From: Bacteroidia bacterium
GTDB lineage: Bacteria > Bacteroidota > Bacteroidia > Cytophagales > Cyclobacteriaceae
Direction of reading: 5' to 3'
NCBI GenBank assembly: GCA_030426345.1
Contig: JAUHYU010000008.1
Location: forward strand, 1-64,000
Length of the DNA: 64,000 nucleotides
Shown here: positions 7,359 to 13,440 of the stretch, one piece after another
Position numbering within the stretch: the stretch's first letter is position 1
Layout: every line of letters starts with the position of its first letter
The notes under the pieces: generated by a model
Told to the model about the DNA's origin: nothing
The model's input: only the letters and a program-made list of their open reading frames with translations
Databases searched by the model: none
Program-made: the position numbers and the translations under genes

Positions 7359-7408
7359 CCCGACTATCATATTTAATTAAATTGCATGCCTCTAATTTTT
7401 TAGTATAT

Positions 7409-9721
7409 ATGGCCCCTATTCATCTTTTCAATAGATACAAATTATCCTTTCTAATATTTGCTGTAGCTTCAATTTGGTGCGGGACGATGGTATTTTACAG
7501 TTGTAGTGAAAAGCCAAAAGAAGCTGAAAACGTAGCTGTTTCTACCTCCAAACATGCACATGATGTATTGAACAATTCGGACTATCTCGGCAGTGAATCT
7601 TGCAAATCGTGTCATGAAGCGGAATATGCCAATTGGAAAGGATCTGATCACGAAAGAGCCATGATGGTGGCAGATTCTTCATCTGTATTGGCTGATTTTA
7701 ATACAACGTTTGAAAATCAGGGAGTTACGTCTAAGTTCTTCAAAAAAGATGGGAAGTACTTTGTAAATACGGAAGGAGGGGATGGTGAATACCATGACTA
7801 TGAAATTCTCTACACTTTTGGCGTTGAGCCATTGCAGCAATATATTGTCGAGTTTCCGAGGGGGAAATTCCAATGTTTGCGCACTGCATGGGATACAGAA
7901 AAGAACAAATGGTTTGATTTATACCCAGATATGAAAGTTGTTCATGACGAATGGATTCATTGGACTAAAGGCGGGCTGAACTGGAATATTATGTGTTCTG
8001 ATTGTCATTCCACTTTGGTGAAAAAGAATTATGACCCAGTTAAGGATGCTTACAATACTACTTTTGCTGAAATAAATGTGAGCTGTGAGTCTTGTCATGG
8101 AGCGGGCAAAGATCATATAGCTGTCATTGGTTCTGAGGCATACCTCAAAAGTGAGGACAGTGTAAAGAATATTGGAAAGCTATATATGCGTAAAAATGCC
8201 GCACCGGGGAAGTTGGTAGATGATTGCGCCAGATGTCATTCGCTCCGTACACAATACACTAAATTTTATGATCATGAAGGAACATATATGGATCACTATG
8301 CGCCTGATCTACTGAGGGACGGAGTGTATCATGCCGACGGACAGATTCTCGGAGAGGTTTATGTATATGGGTCTTTCATACAAAGTAAGATGTATGCTAA
8401 TAATGTAAAATGCAACGATTGCCACAATGTGCACTCCCTCGAATTGAAAGTCAAGGGAAATGCGTTGTGCCTTCAATGCCATGAGCCAGCAAAATATGAA
8501 AGTGAAACTCATCATTTCCATCAATTGAATACAGAGTCTGCTGAGTGCATCAGTTGTCACATGCCTGGGCGAACCTATATGGGAAATGATTTTAGGAGAG
8601 ATCATAGTTTCAGAGTACCCAGACCGGATCTGAGCGTGAAATTTGATACGCCTAATTCTTGCAATGGATCAGGCTGCCACGATGACAAATCATCGGAATG
8701 GGCCGCAGCAGCAATCAAAAAATGGTATGGGCCAGATCGCGCCAAACACTTTTCTGAAGCATTGGCTTTTGGCCGTACCCGTGACCCTGAGGCGATTCCA
8801 GATCTGATCGATCTGGCTACAGACCAAACCCAGCCGGCCATTGCCCGCTCGACTGCGGTTATGTATCTTGGAGAATCTGTTGATCCCGGAGCTTTTCAGG
8901 CGATTGCCTCCCTGCTAAGTGACAAAGAACCTTTGGTGCGATATACATCGGCTCGACAAGTAGATGTGCTACCACCCGAAAATAAAGCCCAATTACTAGC
9001 TCCGTTGTTGGTAGATAATGTACGCACCGTGCGCATTGCAGCACTTGGTTCACTGGTAGGGGTGCCAAAAAATATGATGAGCAATCTTGACCAAGCCAAT
9101 TATGATCAGGTGTTTAAATCATACTGGACAGGATTGCAGCTAAGGTCTGATTTTCCAGGTGGGCAAATGGAAATTGCACAATATTATGATCGCACAGGAA
9201 ATATCTCGTTGGCCGAGCAGGCGTACGTCCGAGCCATTGAAATTGACAGCTATTATAATCCTGCCAGGATAAATCTAGCCGGATTGTACTATAACCAAAA
9301 GAGATTTGCAGAAGCAGAAAAGTTATTCAAGAAAGTGATAGAATTGGAACCTGCCTTTGGGCAAGCTTATTATTCACTAGGGTTGCTTTATGCCGAACAA
9401 AATAAAATGCTTGAGGCGGTTGAATACATGAAGCTGGCCACAGAAAAAATCGATTATAATGATCGGGTTCCTTATAATTATGGGCTGATATTGCAACAAT
9501 TGGGTAAGAGGGATGAAGCAGAGTTGGCATTTAAAAGAGGCTTATCTATCAATCCAAATTCTACTTCCAATCTGTACGCGCTCGGATATTTGTATTTTGA
9601 ACAAAAGCGATTTAAAGAGGCAGCGCCAGTCTTGCAAAGGCTTTTGGCTCTGGAGCCTGAAAACCAACAATATCAACAAATTTACAGCACGATTCAGCAA
9701 GCTTTGGGACAAAACCAGTAA
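7409..9721 (+). CDS. Eight-heme c-type cytochrome fused to HEAT and TPR repeats
   Basis: A lipoprotein of about 770 residues combining electron transfer and protein-interaction modules. I chose ATG 7409 over a TTG 27 bases upstream because it gives a standard lipoprotein signal ending in FYSC. The cytochrome part has seven CXXCH sites (CKSCH, CSDCH, CESCH, CARCH, CNDCH, CLQCH, CISCH) and one CX4CH site (CNGSGCH), hence eight predicted hemes. HEAT-like helices follow (DPEAIPDLIDLA, PLVRYTSARQ, VRTVRIAALG), then about four TPRs to the C-terminus. It probably sits at the outer face of the inner membrane or on the outer membrane and moves electrons to or from an unknown oxidoreductase; no such partner is adjacent. 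Confidence 0.85.
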   Translation: MAPIHLFNRYKLSFLIFAVASIWCGTMVFYSCSEKPKEAENVAVSTSKHAHDVLNNSDYLGSESCKSCHEAEYANWKGSDHERAMMVADSSSVLADFNTTFENQGVTSKFFKKDGKYFVNTEGGDGEYHDYEILYTFGVEPLQQYIVEFPRGKFQCLRTAWDTEKNKWFDLYPDMKVVHDEWIHWTKGGLNWNIMCSDCHSTLVKKNYDPVKDAYNTTFAEINVSCESCHGAGKDHIAVIGSEAYLKSEDSVKNIGKLYMRKNAAPGKLVDDCARCHSLRTQYTKFYDHEGTYMDHYAPDLLRDGVYHADGQILGEVYVYGSFIQSKMYANNVKCNDCHNVHSLELKVKGNALCLQCHEPAKYESETHHFHQLNTESAECISCHMPGRTYMGNDFRRDHSFRVPRPDLSVKFDTPNSCNGSGCHDDKSSEWAAAAIKKWYGPDRAKHFSEALAFGRTRDPEAIPDLIDLATDQTQPAIARSTAVMYLGESVDPGAFQAIASLLSDKEPLVRYTSARQVDVLPPENKAQLLAPLLVDNVRTVRIAALGSLVGVPKNMMSNLDQANYDQVFKSYWTGLQLRSDFPGGQMEIAQYYDRTGNISLAEQAYVRAIEIDSYYNPARINLAGLYYNQKRFAEAEKLFKKVIELEPAFGQAYYSLGLLYAEQNKMLEAVEYMKLATEKIDYNDRVPYNYGLILQQLGKRDEAELAFKRGLSINPNSTSNLYALGYLYFEQKRFKEAAPVLQRLLALEPENQQYQQIYSTIQQALGQNQ

Positions 9722-9846: not shown

Positions 9847-12030
9847 ATGGCACTTATAGTTAAGAAACATATCGCTACAGGGATCACTTGGGTCGCCATT
9901 GAGGCAGCGGATGTTTATATCTGTTGTGGCTGTCCGCCCGATGCTGTTAAGCATTTGAAAAAAGCTGGTATAATCCATGAATTGCGTGGGGATGAAAAAA
10001 TTGAGACAGGACCGAATTGCATCCTGCTATCTGATACTTTAATTCAGAATGGGCAAATCGACAATTTGGCGGAGTTTCCGGTTTTACAAATGCTGTACAT
10101 GCAGGGAACTAATCTTCCTGATCATGCGAATTACAAAAAATTCCGTCCAATGCTCATTGGATGTGCAGATCAAGTAAAATCTCAAATCAATTATATTGCT
10201 GTTGGAAATCATGGACTTGCTACGGAAGAGGAAATCAGAGACACTGGGATTCCGGAAGTAATTTCAAAAAAAATATTTACTACCAAGACTTATTTTTCTG
10301 GAGGAAAGATTACTCCTGTTGAGGAATTGGTAACACCACGTATCCTCGAAGATGAGCAAATAGAAATAAAAAATGGCGTTTTTATTTCTAGGATAGCAAT
10401 CAATAAATTCGATATTTCTTATGAACATGAGACCATTTCCGTTGATCTGAATTTGTCAGAAAAAACACATTTTACCGCGCCATATTCATTGCCTTTAAGC
10501 AAAATAGAACCTGATGTTTTTTCAATTACACATTCTGGTGAGGGCAATGGCTGGGATGTCAATAGACCTTGTATGGCGGGTATAATACGCCATCGTGATC
10601 ACATTTACCTTGTAGATGCCGGGCCAAATATTTTGAATAATCTGGAACATTTGAGTATTGGGATTTCAGAAATCGAAGGCATATTTTTAAGCCATATTCA
10701 CGACGATCATTTTGCCGGAATAACGGAATTGTTACGTACGGAGCGAAAATTGAATTTATATGCTACGGCCTTGATTCATAAGACTGCAGAGCGCAAACTC
10801 AAAGCTCTTTTGAATTCGGAAATGGATTTGCTCCAAATGTCTTTTAATTGCATTGATCTGAAACCGGATGAATGGAATATTCTCCAGGGCATGGAAATTA
10901 AGCCCTTTTATTCGCCCCATACAGTTGAGACGAATGTCTTTCATTTTAGGGTTTTGGAAGGTCAGAATTATAAAACTTATGTCCATCTTTCAGACGCCAT
11001 AAATTTTAATACCTATCGGCAAATAATAGATACATCTCAGGGTATTTTCTCCGAGGCAGATATGGATTATGTAAAAGAAGCCTATTTATCCAAAGTGGAT
11101 TTGAAGAAAATCGATGTTGGTGGCGGATTGATTCATGGAAATTTGTCGGATTATGCAAAAGATAATTCAGGGTTATTGGTGATGGCACATACCGATGGTT
11201 TTCCAAATTCAGAGCAGAGCAATATCATAAATGTAAATTTTGGAGAAACTCATGTGCTTATCCATCATGAAGATTTCTCGATTTGGAAAAAAAGAGCCAT
11301 TGAATTTTTGCGGGTTTATTTCCCGATGTTGAATAAAGCCCATATTGAGGAATTAATCGGCCTTATGGGCATTAGAGAGTTTTCACCGGGTGAAATGCTT
11401 CCGAAATCCATGGATTCAAAAGGCAATTGCTTTTTGATTTTAAGTGGATTGGTTGAGCAGAAAAATGAAAGTAGAATGCGCTTTGATGCAGGCAATATTG
11501 TTGGAAACACAAATAAGTATTTTGGTTATTCTGATCAAGAAACTTATTCAGCTCTGAGCTACGTGACTTGTATGGAAATGGATGAAGAATCCATGGATCA
11601 ATTGATGCATGATCATCATTTGAAGGAGGCAATTGATGCTAGAAGAGATATTATTACCAAGCTGCAAAAGTCAGATGTTATTCAAAATATAGGTTCTACT
11701 GCCTTATTTACGCATTTGGCAAGTGCATTTGTAGAAGTCACAATCGCAAAAAATGACCTTTCCGAAGAATCGTTGCGAGACCATATTTACATTCTATTGG
11801 AAGGGAAGGTAAAAGCCCAATATTTCCATGGAAAGCAACAAAATGTTTTTCCATATGAATTTTTTGGAGGAGAAAATGTGTTGCAAAATTATAGGGAAAA
11901 CCCTAATTATATAATAGAAAATAATCTAAAGGTTTTGTCAATTTCGATAGATCAAGTGACGCTAATACCAAAGCTGATTTGGGCAATGATCGATTTGGAA
12001 GAGGAGAGGTGTCAAAAGTTTTCAAAATAA
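9847..12030 (+). CDS. Metallo-beta-lactamase-fold protein with two cyclic-nucleotide-binding-like domains
   Basis: A cytoplasmic protein of 727 residues without signal peptide. ATG 9847 is preferred over a TTG 15 bases upstream. Residues 1 to about 215 form a domain I do not recognise (contains CCGCPPDAVKHLKKAG). A metallo-beta-lactamase fold follows, with the metal motif HIHDDH (H283, H285, D287, H288) and later HLSDA and VGGGLIHGNLSD. Residues about 505-600 and 605-725 look like two diverged cyclic-nucleotide-binding domains (FLILSGLVEQ, IYILLEGKVK), both lacking the canonical phosphate-binding FGE...RSA signature. One possible role is a cyclic-nucleotide phosphodiesterase or regulated hydrolase; this is inference. 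The next gene begins 15 bases later and also has such a domain. Confidence 0.75.
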   Translation: MALIVKKHIATGITWVAIEAADVYICCGCPPDAVKHLKKAGIIHELRGDEKIETGPNCILLSDTLIQNGQIDNLAEFPVLQMLYMQGTNLPDHANYKKFRPMLIGCADQVKSQINYIAVGNHGLATEEEIRDTGIPEVISKKIFTTKTYFSGGKITPVEELVTPRILEDEQIEIKNGVFISRIAINKFDISYEHETISVDLNLSEKTHFTAPYSLPLSKIEPDVFSITHSGEGNGWDVNRPCMAGIIRHRDHIYLVDAGPNILNNLEHLSIGISEIEGIFLSHIHDDHFAGITELLRTERKLNLYATALIHKTAERKLKALLNSEMDLLQMSFNCIDLKPDEWNILQGMEIKPFYSPHTVETNVFHFRVLEGQNYKTYVHLSDAINFNTYRQIIDTSQGIFSEADMDYVKEAYLSKVDLKKIDVGGGLIHGNLSDYAKDNSGLLVMAHTDGFPNSEQSNIINVNFGETHVLIHHEDFSIWKKRAIEFLRVYFPMLNKAHIEELIGLMGIREFSPGEMLPKSMDSKGNCFLILSGLVEQKNESRMRFDAGNIVGNTNKYFGYSDQETYSALSYVTCMEMDEESMDQLMHDHHLKEAIDARRDIITKLQKSDVIQNIGSTALFTHLASAFVEVTIAKNDLSEESLRDHIYILLEGKVKAQYFHGKQQNVFPYEFFGGENVLQNYRENPNYIIENNLKVLSISIDQVTLIPKLIWAMIDLEEERCQKFSK

Positions 12031-12045
12031 AATAATGAATAGAAA

Positions 12046-13440
12046 GTGAACGAATTGCAGAAGGGTAAAATATTAAGGGGTTTGAATCAAACCGCCATCT
12101 TCAAAAATATCCCAGATGATGTTCTGATCAATCTTTCTGAAAAAGCAGGTTTGGAAACCTACTTGCCCGAAGAGGTGATCGTTTGGGAAAGTGACCCGAG
12201 CGATCGATTATTTATTACGATCAGCGGCATAGTAACTGTCAAGAAAGTTATTCCTGATAAAAGTGACAAGATATTTGCCTATTTACTTCCAGGGAGCACT
12301 TTTGGTGAAGTAGGAATACTGGAAAATAAGCCAAGGTCTGCTACCGTTTCTGCACTAACTGATGTAGAAACTTTGGTTTTTGATCGAGATTATTTTTTGC
12401 AAATCCTTTATGATTATCCTTCCGTGGCCATAGAGTTAGCAAAATTGTTGGGGCATTATCTCACGGAATCGAACAAACGCCTTACCAGAGGAGATAAGGA
12501 AAAAAGGGTTGTGTTGGTTTTTGATCTATTTCATACCCATGGCGCTACAGAGCTAGGCAAAAGATTGGCCGTAAGATTGAAAAATAACACTGATACGGGA
12601 ACGATATATGCCGAATATCCATTCAGAAATACGCTCTCGGCGGAATTGGATTTGTCCAAGGCAAAATCCAATGTATATCAGCATGACAGTGGACTGGATA
12701 TATTGCTGGAGAAGGAAGCTCAAGGAGGCACCAAAATGGCCCTGATGGTAGATAACCTGTTGAATACTTATGAAAATCTGATCATCTATTTGAATAAGGA
12801 TTTTAATGAGAATGTGGAACAAATACTGGAGAATGTCAACCAAGTGATCGTGGTAGGATCTGGTGATAAGGATCATTGGAATGCCATTTCAAACCTTCAT
12901 AAATCCATCAAATCACAAATTGAAAACAACAATACCAAGATATTTACCATATTGATCAACAATGGTTTAGAGGAAGATTTTAACGTTTCCCCTCCGCCCG
13001 ATTTTAATGTTGTATTTTCTAATGAAACAACAGATTATCAACTATGGTCCGGTGACAATGCGCATCTTGCTTCTGCATCTTTTGACGAAGCTGTAGAGAC
13101 TTTTGTGGATAGATTGCAGCGCAATAATCATATTGGCATTTTTATCCCTACCACGTTCGACGTCAATACACATTTTGATACAACGCCCTACATTGACAGA
13201 ACGTTGGCCTTTCTTGGCGAGCGTTTTGGTGGAGCGACGAGTGAAGAAGTTAAAGGGATTTGGAACAGCGAAGAAATTGGTCTGGTAGGGGAGACGCTCT
13301 TTAAAGTTCATACCTATGCGACATCTCGCGATCTCAAAGAGTATCTGGATGAAGTGGTGGAATATATTCGGGAAATAAAGAAAGAATTGAAACAGGAAGC
13401 CATGGCCATGGAAATCAACCAGAAACTCACATTGATCTAG
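12046..13440 (+). CDS. CRP-like cyclic-nucleotide sensor fused to P-loop-like and DUF3574-like domains, no DNA-binding domain
   Basis: A 464-residue cytoplasmic protein starting at GTG. Residues about 15-125 are a canonical cyclic-nucleotide-binding domain; the phosphate-binding cassette FGEVGILENKPRSATV starts at residue 86 with the key Glu88 and Arg97 intact, so cAMP or cGMP binding is likely. Residues about 145-335 resemble a P-loop/Rossmann fold (VVLVFDLFHTHGATELG) like the middle region of bacterial NTE/patatin proteins, but without a clear Walker A lysine or any patatin domain. The C-terminal part has FGGAT at 394-398 and a helical tail, resembling DUF3574-type domains. There is no helix-turn-helix. 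It forms an operon with the upstream gene. Confidence 0.72.
   Translation: MNELQKGKILRGLNQTAIFKNIPDDVLINLSEKAGLETYLPEEVIVWESDPSDRLFITISGIVTVKKVIPDKSDKIFAYLLPGSTFGEVGILENKPRSATVSALTDVETLVFDRDYFLQILYDYPSVAIELAKLLGHYLTESNKRLTRGDKEKRVVLVFDLFHTHGATELGKRLAVRLKNNTDTGTIYAEYPFRNTLSAELDLSKAKSNVYQHDSGLDILLEKEAQGGTKMALMVDNLLNTYENLIIYLNKDFNENVEQILENVNQVIVVGSGDKDHWNAISNLHKSIKSQIENNNTKIFTILINNGLEEDFNVSPPPDFNVVFSNETTDYQLWSGDNAHLASASFDEAVETFVDRLQRNNHIGIFIPTTFDVNTHFDTTPYIDRTLAFLGERFGGATSEEVKGIWNSEEIGLVGETLFKVHTYATSRDLKEYLDEVVEYIREIKKELKQEAMAMEINQKLTLI

What the first reader, a model, noticed from the sequence alone, without database searches (positions are those of the whole stretch)
9847..13440. Two-gene cyclic-nucleotide module with a metallo-beta-lactamase enzyme and a CRP-like sensor that has no DNA-binding domain
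Seen: the first gene joins an unrecognised N-terminal domain, a metallo-beta-lactamase fold with HIHDDH, and two diverged cyclic-nucleotide-binding domains; the second, 15 bases later, has a canonical cassette (FGEVGILENKPRSATV) followed by a P-loop-like domain and a DUF3574-like domain. Neither has a helix-turn-helix or a transmembrane region, so this is not a transcription factor or a channel. Inference: a signalling unit in which one protein degrades or is gated by a cyclic nucleotide and the other is an effector. I do not recognise a described system with this pair.
Basis: partly seen in the sequence, partly recalled or inferred. Interest (0 to 1): 0.7.

Follow-up and report, generated by a model that had tools for sequence, protein, structure and literature searches.

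The report
cAMP phosphodiesterase with separate cyclic-nucleotide receptor
Two neighbouring genes of a Cytophagales bacterium encode a probable cAMP-destroying enzyme, built like a slime-mould cAMP/cGMP phosphodiesterase, and a separate cyclic-nucleotide-binding protein of unknown output; related genomes put an adenylyl cyclase next to the enzyme gene, which outlines a complete make-sense-destroy cAMP circuit.

Summary
In detail: two intact co-directional genes, 15 bp apart. Gene A (727 aa) folds confidently (pLDDT 89): an N-terminal domain that superposes with the degenerate first half of long tRNase Z (ELAC2), a metallo-beta-lactamase domain with every metal ligand, then two cyclic-nucleotide-binding domains (CNBDs). 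Its catalytic domain is closest to the cyclic-nucleotide phosphodiesterases Apyc1 and YhfI. In at least 15 related genomes (6 genera) a class III cyclase lies directly upstream on the same strand; those read in full carry adenylyl-type residues. So A is most likely a cAMP phosphodiesterase built like Dictyostelium GbpA/GbpB, not unprecedented. Gene B (464 aa) is a canonical CNBD, a ParA/MinD-like domain without the Walker lysine, and a C-terminal domain shared with a small mobile-element protein. A and B are adjacent only in this genus but co-occur across the order (23 of 26 B+ genomes carry A). New here: A's CNBDs lost their ligand-contact residues in all 38 Cytophagales sequences but kept them in 42 of 47 outside, while B's are invariant in 32 of 32. 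This suggests that cAMP sensing moved from the enzyme to a separate receptor. B's output is unknown.

The parts
9847..12030 (+). Gene A, 727 aa: predicted cyclic-nucleotide phosphodiesterase (degenerate MBL-like N-half, catalytic MBL, two CNBDs)
9847..10512 (+). A residues 1-222: degenerate MBL-like domain, placed as in the N-half of ELAC2 (tRNase Z long form); invariant Cys27/Pro30/Asp32 region
   Evidence: VIA-align to ELAC2 covers model 1-473, 369-380 residues, Z 20-21, rmsd about 4; no detectable sequence similarity to the MBL half (HHalign prob 0.1%)
10513..11271 (+). A residues 223-475: catalytic MBL domain, SHIHDDH motif (282-288), H358, D383, H448
   Evidence: Apyc1 Z 24.6, YhfI Z 23.0
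11296..11646 (+). A residues about 484-600: CNBD 1, phosphate-binding cassette degenerate (N554, S568)
11647..12006 (+). A residues about 601-720: CNBD 2, cassette degenerate (G675)
12046..13440 (+). Gene B, 464 aa: predicted cyclic-nucleotide receptor/effector
12046..12489 (+). B residues 1-148: canonical CNBD, E88, R97 and S98 invariant in 32 orthologues
   Evidence: PF00027 1.7e-20
12487..13080 (+). B residues 148-345: degenerate ParA/MinD-like domain, Walker lysine absent
   Evidence: HHalign to Cytophagales ParA prob 57%, E 1e-4, collinear over 141 columns
13078..13437 (+). B residues 345-464: conserved C-terminal domain (RFGGAT...W.SE..GLV.E...ELrQEAmA.E), related to a stand-alone 117-aa mobile-element protein
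   Evidence: phrog_3543 3.4e-7; L161 38% identity; DUF3574 sub-threshold

Best explanation
Gene A is an MBL-fold (class II type) 3',5'-cyclic-nucleotide phosphodiesterase, most probably for cAMP: two metal ions held by HxHxDH, H358, D383 and H448 hydrolyse the phosphodiester, and the degenerate N-terminal MBL-like half probably stands in for the second protomer of homodimeric relatives. Gene B is the receptor of the same circuit: cAMP (or cGMP) binds its intact CNBD and switches its degenerate ParA/MinD-like and C-terminal domains, which act by protein contact rather than DNA binding. Class III adenylyl cyclases, adjacent to A in relatives and elsewhere in this genome, make the signal. In Cytophagales A's own CNBDs have lost the ligand contacts, so allosteric sensing has probably moved to B or to a CNBD fused to the cyclase. 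Shown: fold, active-site residues, cyclase linkage, A/B co-occurrence, loss and retention of CNBD residues. Inferred: substrate, direction of regulation, and any contact between A and B. B's output is not known.
For: Best structural matches of A's catalytic domain are cNMP phosphodiesterases: Apyc1 Z 24.6, 24.4, 23.6 and YhfI Z 23.0; yeast PDE1 Z 19.8. All seven metal-site residues are invariant in 59 homologues. A class III cyclase lies immediately upstream on the same strand in at least 15 genomes of 6 genera; in three, the cyclase stop codon overlaps A's start (ATGA). The cyclase genes read in full (L066, L067, L069-L072, L085, L088, L143) carry the adenylyl-type residues (IKTIGD Lys, YDIWG Asp). 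All 13 A+ genomes among 98 relatives have a strong cyclase, against 19 of 85 A- genomes (p 6e-8, not tree-corrected). A/B co-occurrence in 291 genomes of the order: 35 A, 26 B, 23 both (p 3e-22; 10 genera with both, genus-level p 1e-7). Canonical CNBD1 contacts of A: 0 of 38 Cytophagales against 42 of 47 others; CNBD2 Glu 0 of 38 against 41 of 47. B's E88/R97/S98 are invariant in 32 of 32.
Against: No activity or binding data exist. A/B adjacency is limited to one genus, and one family (f15) carries A without B. Co-occurrence and CNBD degeneration may each be one old event inherited by a clade. In this genome no cyclase is near A. The best family-model score of A is to RNase Z (partial, far below cut-off), and PhnP-like and PqqB folds score nearly as high as YhfI. 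Outside Cytophagales few A loci (1 clear case among the 6-kb flanks) have a cyclase next to them.
Confidence: 0.68

Rival explanations
1. A is an RNA-processing or nuclease-type MBL enzyme (tRNase Z-like, ELAC2-like halves) controlled by cyclic nucleotides, not a cNMP phosphodiesterase.
For: NCBIfam RNase Z is A's best partial family hit (E 1e-11); the N-half plus MBL arrangement superposes on ELAC2.
Against: Score 46.7 bits against a cut-off of 292.95, and the genome has its own full-length RNase Z at 294 bits. Apyc1 and YhfI outrank RNase Z structures (Z 24.6/23.0 against 21.5-21.9). The H358-D383 spacing of 25 residues leaves no room for the tRNase Z exosite arm (sequence; family knowledge). 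Linkage is to adenylyl cyclases.
Confidence: 0.08
2. A hydrolyses another small phosphodiester or pyrophosphate (PhnP-like cyclic phosphates, nucleotide diphosphates, 2',3'-cNMP), and its CNBDs are relics.
For: PhnP-family and Brucella AMP/GMP-bound structures score Z 22-23; A's CNBDs are degenerate in this order.
Against: A class III cyclase is the recurrent upstream gene; outside Cytophagales the CNBDs keep canonical contacts; Apyc1 and YhfI rank higher.
Confidence: 0.14
3. The pair belongs to a cNMP-based anti-phage (Pycsar-like) or counter-defence system.
For: PADLOC models PycTIR and Effector hit B's CNBD; A resembles Apyc1; B's C-terminal domain occurs alone on a mobile element.
Against: The PADLOC hits cover mainly the CNBD; there is no killing domain (TIR, TM) in either protein; the genus-level neighbourhood is conserved and metabolic (cytochrome, isomerase); relatives have adenylyl-type, mostly TPR-bearing cyclases.
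Confidence: 0.04
4. A and B are independent genes that happen to be adjacent in this genus; B works in an unrelated pathway.
For: Adjacency is found in one genus only; B is unlinked elsewhere, with no constant neighbour.
Against: Strong co-occurrence across 291 genomes and 116 genera; both carry CNBDs.
Confidence: 0.15

Closest known systems
Dictyostelium GbpA and GbpB (class IIb cyclic-nucleotide phosphodiesterases), PMC11988041
   Same: MBL catalytic domain followed by two CNBDs; cytosolic phosphodiesterase for cGMP (GbpA) or cAMP (GbpB).
   Different: Eukaryotic and activated by cyclic nucleotide. The window's protein has lost the canonical CNBD contacts; the presence of the degenerate N-terminal MBL-like half in GbpA/B could not be checked here.
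Atypical class II PDEs: YhfI (B. subtilis), Rv1339 (mycobacteria), CpdA (C. glutamicum), PMC9293780; phage/bacterial Apyc1, PMC9117128
   Same: MBL fold, [T/S]HxHxDH motif (window: SHIHDDH); closest solved folds (Z 23-24.6).
   Different: Those are stand-alone domains; YhfI and Apyc1 are homodimers. A carries a fused degenerate half and tandem CNBDs. Apyc1 Pfam model not reached (20.7 against 50 bits).
tRNase Z long form / ELAC2
   Same: Degenerate N-terminal MBL-like half plus catalytic MBL half in one chain (369-380 residues superposed).
   Different: About 14% identity in the superposition, no exosite arm, followed by CNBDs; a separate RNase Z gene exists.
CRP/FNR-type CNBD proteins and CNBD effectors (for gene B)
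   Same: Canonical CNBD with FGE...PRSA cassette.
   Different: No HTH; instead a degenerate ParA/MinD-like domain and a phrog_3543-type C-terminal domain.

Membership tests
Atypical class II PDE (YhfI/Rv1339/CgCpdA) | MBL fold with [T/S]HxHxDH and further metal ligands | tested here: met
   SHIHDDH 282-288, H358, D383, H448 invariant (His/Asp) in 59 sequences; Z 23.0 to YhfI. The published motif prefers small or hydrophobic X; here the second X is Asp.
Atypical class II PDE (YhfI/Rv1339/CgCpdA) | NCBIfam cyclic nucleotide-degrading phosphodiesterase model NF041851 above cut-off | tested here: not met
   14.4 bits against 400: not a member of that subfamily
Atypical class II PDE (YhfI/Rv1339/CgCpdA) | Hydrolysis of 3',5'-cAMP/cGMP | not testable with these tools
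   needs enzyme assay
GbpA/GbpB class IIb PDE | Two CNBDs C-terminal to the MBL domain | tested here: met
GbpA/GbpB class IIb PDE | Functional cyclic-nucleotide-binding CNBDs (canonical cassette) | tested here: not met
   window protein lacks acidic residue and Arg in CNBD1 and Glu in CNBD2; most non-Cytophagales homologues keep them
GbpA/GbpB class IIb PDE | Direct sequence homology to the Dictyostelium proteins | not tested
   no eukaryotic sequences in the available collections
Typical class II PDE (PF02112) | Pfam PDEase_II match | tested here: not met
   no match in the whole genome, nor in the scan of A
RNase Z | TIGR02651 above curated cut-off | tested here: not met
   46.7 bits against 292.95; the genome's true RNase Z scores 294.1 elsewhere
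Apyc1 (anti-Pycsar) | PF23023 above cut-off | tested here: not met
   20.7 bits against 50
CRP/FNR transcription factor (gene B) | C-terminal helix-turn-helix domain | tested here: not met
   no HTH hit in Pfam; CRP model 36.5 against 266 bits, covering the CNBD only
ParA/MinD ATPase (gene B middle domain) | Walker A lysine | tested here: not met
   aligned position is Ala, Gly, Ser or Thr in 32 of 32; fold similarity itself only suggestive (prob 57%)
DUF3574 (gene B C-terminus) | PF12098 above cut-off | tested here: not met
   2 of 14 orthologues hit, best E 0.18; stand-alone relative L161 scores 14.9 against 25 bits
Pycsar defence system | PycC cyclase plus CNBD effector with TIR or TM domain | tested here: not met
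   only CNBD-region overlap in PADLOC; no TIR hit, no evident TM

The most novel reading that the evidence does not exclude
In Cytophagales a cAMP phosphodiesterase of the MBL + tandem-CNBD kind lost the ability of its own CNBDs to bind the signal, and the sensing role was taken over by a separate protein of a new architecture (B: CNBD + degenerate ParA/MinD-like domain + phrog_3543-type domain) or, in one family, by a CNBD fused to the cyclase. B would be a new, non-DNA-binding class of bacterial cAMP effector that is also the control subunit of the phosphodiesterase.
Probability: 0.3. Interest if true: 0.7.

Novelty: new variant of a known kind. Interest (0 to 1): 0.52.

Why it matters
Here a widespread, apparently uncharacterised bacterial family (about 400 loci, mostly outside Bacteroidota) has the layout of a slime-mould phosphodiesterase, sits beside adenylyl cyclases in Cytophagales, and co-occurs with a CNBD protein that has no CRP-type DNA-binding domain. 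It gives concrete targets (an enzyme, a receptor and a cyclase) and a testable case of a regulatory function moving between proteins of one circuit. It also raises the question whether amoebal GbpA/GbpB came from bacteria.

Tried and rejected
Sequence proof that A's N-half is an MBL duplicate: HHalign prob 0.1%; the claim rests on superposition with ELAC2 only, and the N-half was not folded or searched alone. Viral collection for B: only a 117-aa relative of its C-terminal domain. Conserved neighbours of B where it is unlinked: none seen. The AAA_31 protein near A/B in sister species is an ArsA-type ATPase on the other strand, judged unrelated. RNase Z, CRP-type regulator and Pycsar readings rejected as in the membership table. 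Literature: no paper in the held library was found that describes the bacterial MBL-CNBD family; the original subscription papers on GbpA/GbpB are not held. Class I and class III (calcineurin-type) phosphodiesterases elsewhere in the genome were not searched.
Full report
The pair. Gene A (9847-12030, 727 aa) and gene B (12046-13440, GTG start, 464 aa) are intact, on the same strand and 15 bp apart, downstream of a multihaem cytochrome/TPR gene. A sister species carries the same order, isomerase - cytochrome - A - B, and the cytochrome - A - B part recurs in others.

Anatomy of A. Pfam sees an MBL domain and a CNBD region. A 59-sequence alignment gave a confident model (pLDDT 89, pTM 0.91). Foldseek ranks tandem CNBDs of PKA/PKG and MBL enzymes. 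VIA-align puts residues 225-473 nearest to Apyc1 (Z 24.6) and YhfI (Z 23.0), with PqqB, PhnP-like enzymes, RNase Z and yeast PDE1 (19.8) behind. Only the two-halved ELAC2 aligns over residues 1-473 (369-380 residues, Z 20-21, rmsd about 4). The N-terminal domain therefore looks like a degenerate MBL half arranged as in long tRNase Z, though sequence profiles do not detect it. YhfI and Apyc1 are homodimers, and Apyc1 uses residues from the opposing protomer (PMC9117128), so a fused half could play that role (inference). The metal site H283, H285, D287, H288, H358, D383, H448 is invariant in all 59.

What A acts on. Among relatives a class III cyclase lies directly upstream of A on the same strand in genus g74 (7 of 7 genomes, two cyclases in tandem in at least G079 and G094), in genus g57 (three genomes, ATGA overlap of cyclase stop and A start; there A lacks CNBDs), and in four genera of family f15. 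That is 15 genomes and 6 genera out of 33 A+ genomes of the order whose flank was inspected. In at least one f15 genome (G089) the cyclase carries its own N-terminal CNBD with an intact cassette (FGEYSLIESDAKSRSASV). The cyclases read in full have the Lys and Asp that mark adenylyl cyclases (from established knowledge of class III cyclases). This genome has four cyclase matches on other contigs, one with the Lys/Asp pair, one mixed (Glu/Asp) and two weak. No typical class II phosphodiesterase (PF02112) is present and a separate RNase Z is. The literature places MBL enzymes of this fold as cAMP/cGMP phosphodiesterases: YhfI prefers cAMP/cGMP (PMC9117128), and Rv1339 and C. glutamicum CpdA form with it the 'atypical class II' group with [T/S]HxHxDH (PMC9293780). 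Dictyostelium GbpA/GbpB join an MBL phosphodiesterase to two downstream CNBDs and are activated by cyclic nucleotide (PMC11988041); Physarum has a PdeE homologue (PMC4758236).

Spread. A is found at about 400 loci of bacterial genomes; the best 80 include Alphaproteobacteria, Magnetococcales, Desulfobacterota-type and SAR324 genomes. Full-length B was found only in Cytophagales in the sets searched; its C-terminal domain has a relative on a mobile element. A and B are neighbours only in the window's genus. In 291 genomes of the order A occurs in 35, B in 26 and both in 23; all 12 A-only genomes belong to one family (f15) and all 3 B-only genomes to another (f4). These p-values are not corrected for relatedness.

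Who senses. In CNBDs an acidic residue contacts the ribose and an Arg the phosphate (established knowledge). In A's CNBD1 both are present in 42 of 47 sequences outside Cytophagales and in 0 of 38 inside; the Glu of CNBD2 is present in 41 of 47 against 0 of 38 (the Cytophagales set includes several near-identical pairs fetched by two routes). B keeps Glu88, Arg97 and Ser98 in 32 of 32. So in this order the intact sensor is in B, or in f15 at least once on the cyclase. This is one clade and may reflect a single loss.

Anatomy of B. The middle region aligns collinearly with a ParA/MinD profile (prob 57%, E 1e-4) but the Walker lysine is Ala, Gly, Ser or Thr in every orthologue, so ATP hydrolysis is unlikely. 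The C-terminal domain holds most of B's invariant residues; it matches phrog_3543 and a 117-aa protein on a metagenomic mobile element. Its activity is not known, and the structure prediction failed.

Verdict. A: probable cAMP phosphodiesterase, a bacterial enzyme with the architecture of GbpA/GbpB, probability about 0.8. B: cyclic-nucleotide receptor of the same circuit, about 0.6. The pair is a new variant of a known kind; its most interesting feature is the loss of the enzyme's own sensor residues in exactly the order that has B.

Noticed in passing
L161:4983-5336 (IMGVR_UViG_3300000839_000738): Stand-alone 117-aa relative (38% identity) of gene B's C-terminal domain on an 82.7-kb metagenomic viral/mobile contig, next to SLOG-like, HTH and DnaJ-like reading frames; family phrog_3543, function unknown.
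   Followed up: partly
L070, L071, L072 (genomes G062, G081, G096): Short A proteins that lack both CNBDs, each with its start codon overlapping the stop of a TPR-bearing class III adenylyl cyclase (ATGA).
   Followed up: yes
L069:5691-6911; L210:105-1310; L218:2540-3580: Family f15 cyclases directly upstream of A; in L069 (and apparently L210 and L218) an N-terminal CNBD is fused to the class III cyclase domain.
   Followed up: partly
L162 (G000:C41:12635-13165): Class III cyclase of the window's own genome with mixed substrate residues (Glu at the Lys position, Asp kept): possible guanylyl or relaxed specificity.
   Followed up: no
L086-L160 (Proteobacteria and others): Outside Cytophagales A often lies near histidine kinases, response regulators or, in two loci, a STAS-type protein, suggesting a role beside phosphorelay signalling.
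   Followed up: no
window 7382-9721: Multihaem cytochrome c with TPR repeats, syntenic upstream of A in the genus; could share the transcript.
   Followed up: no
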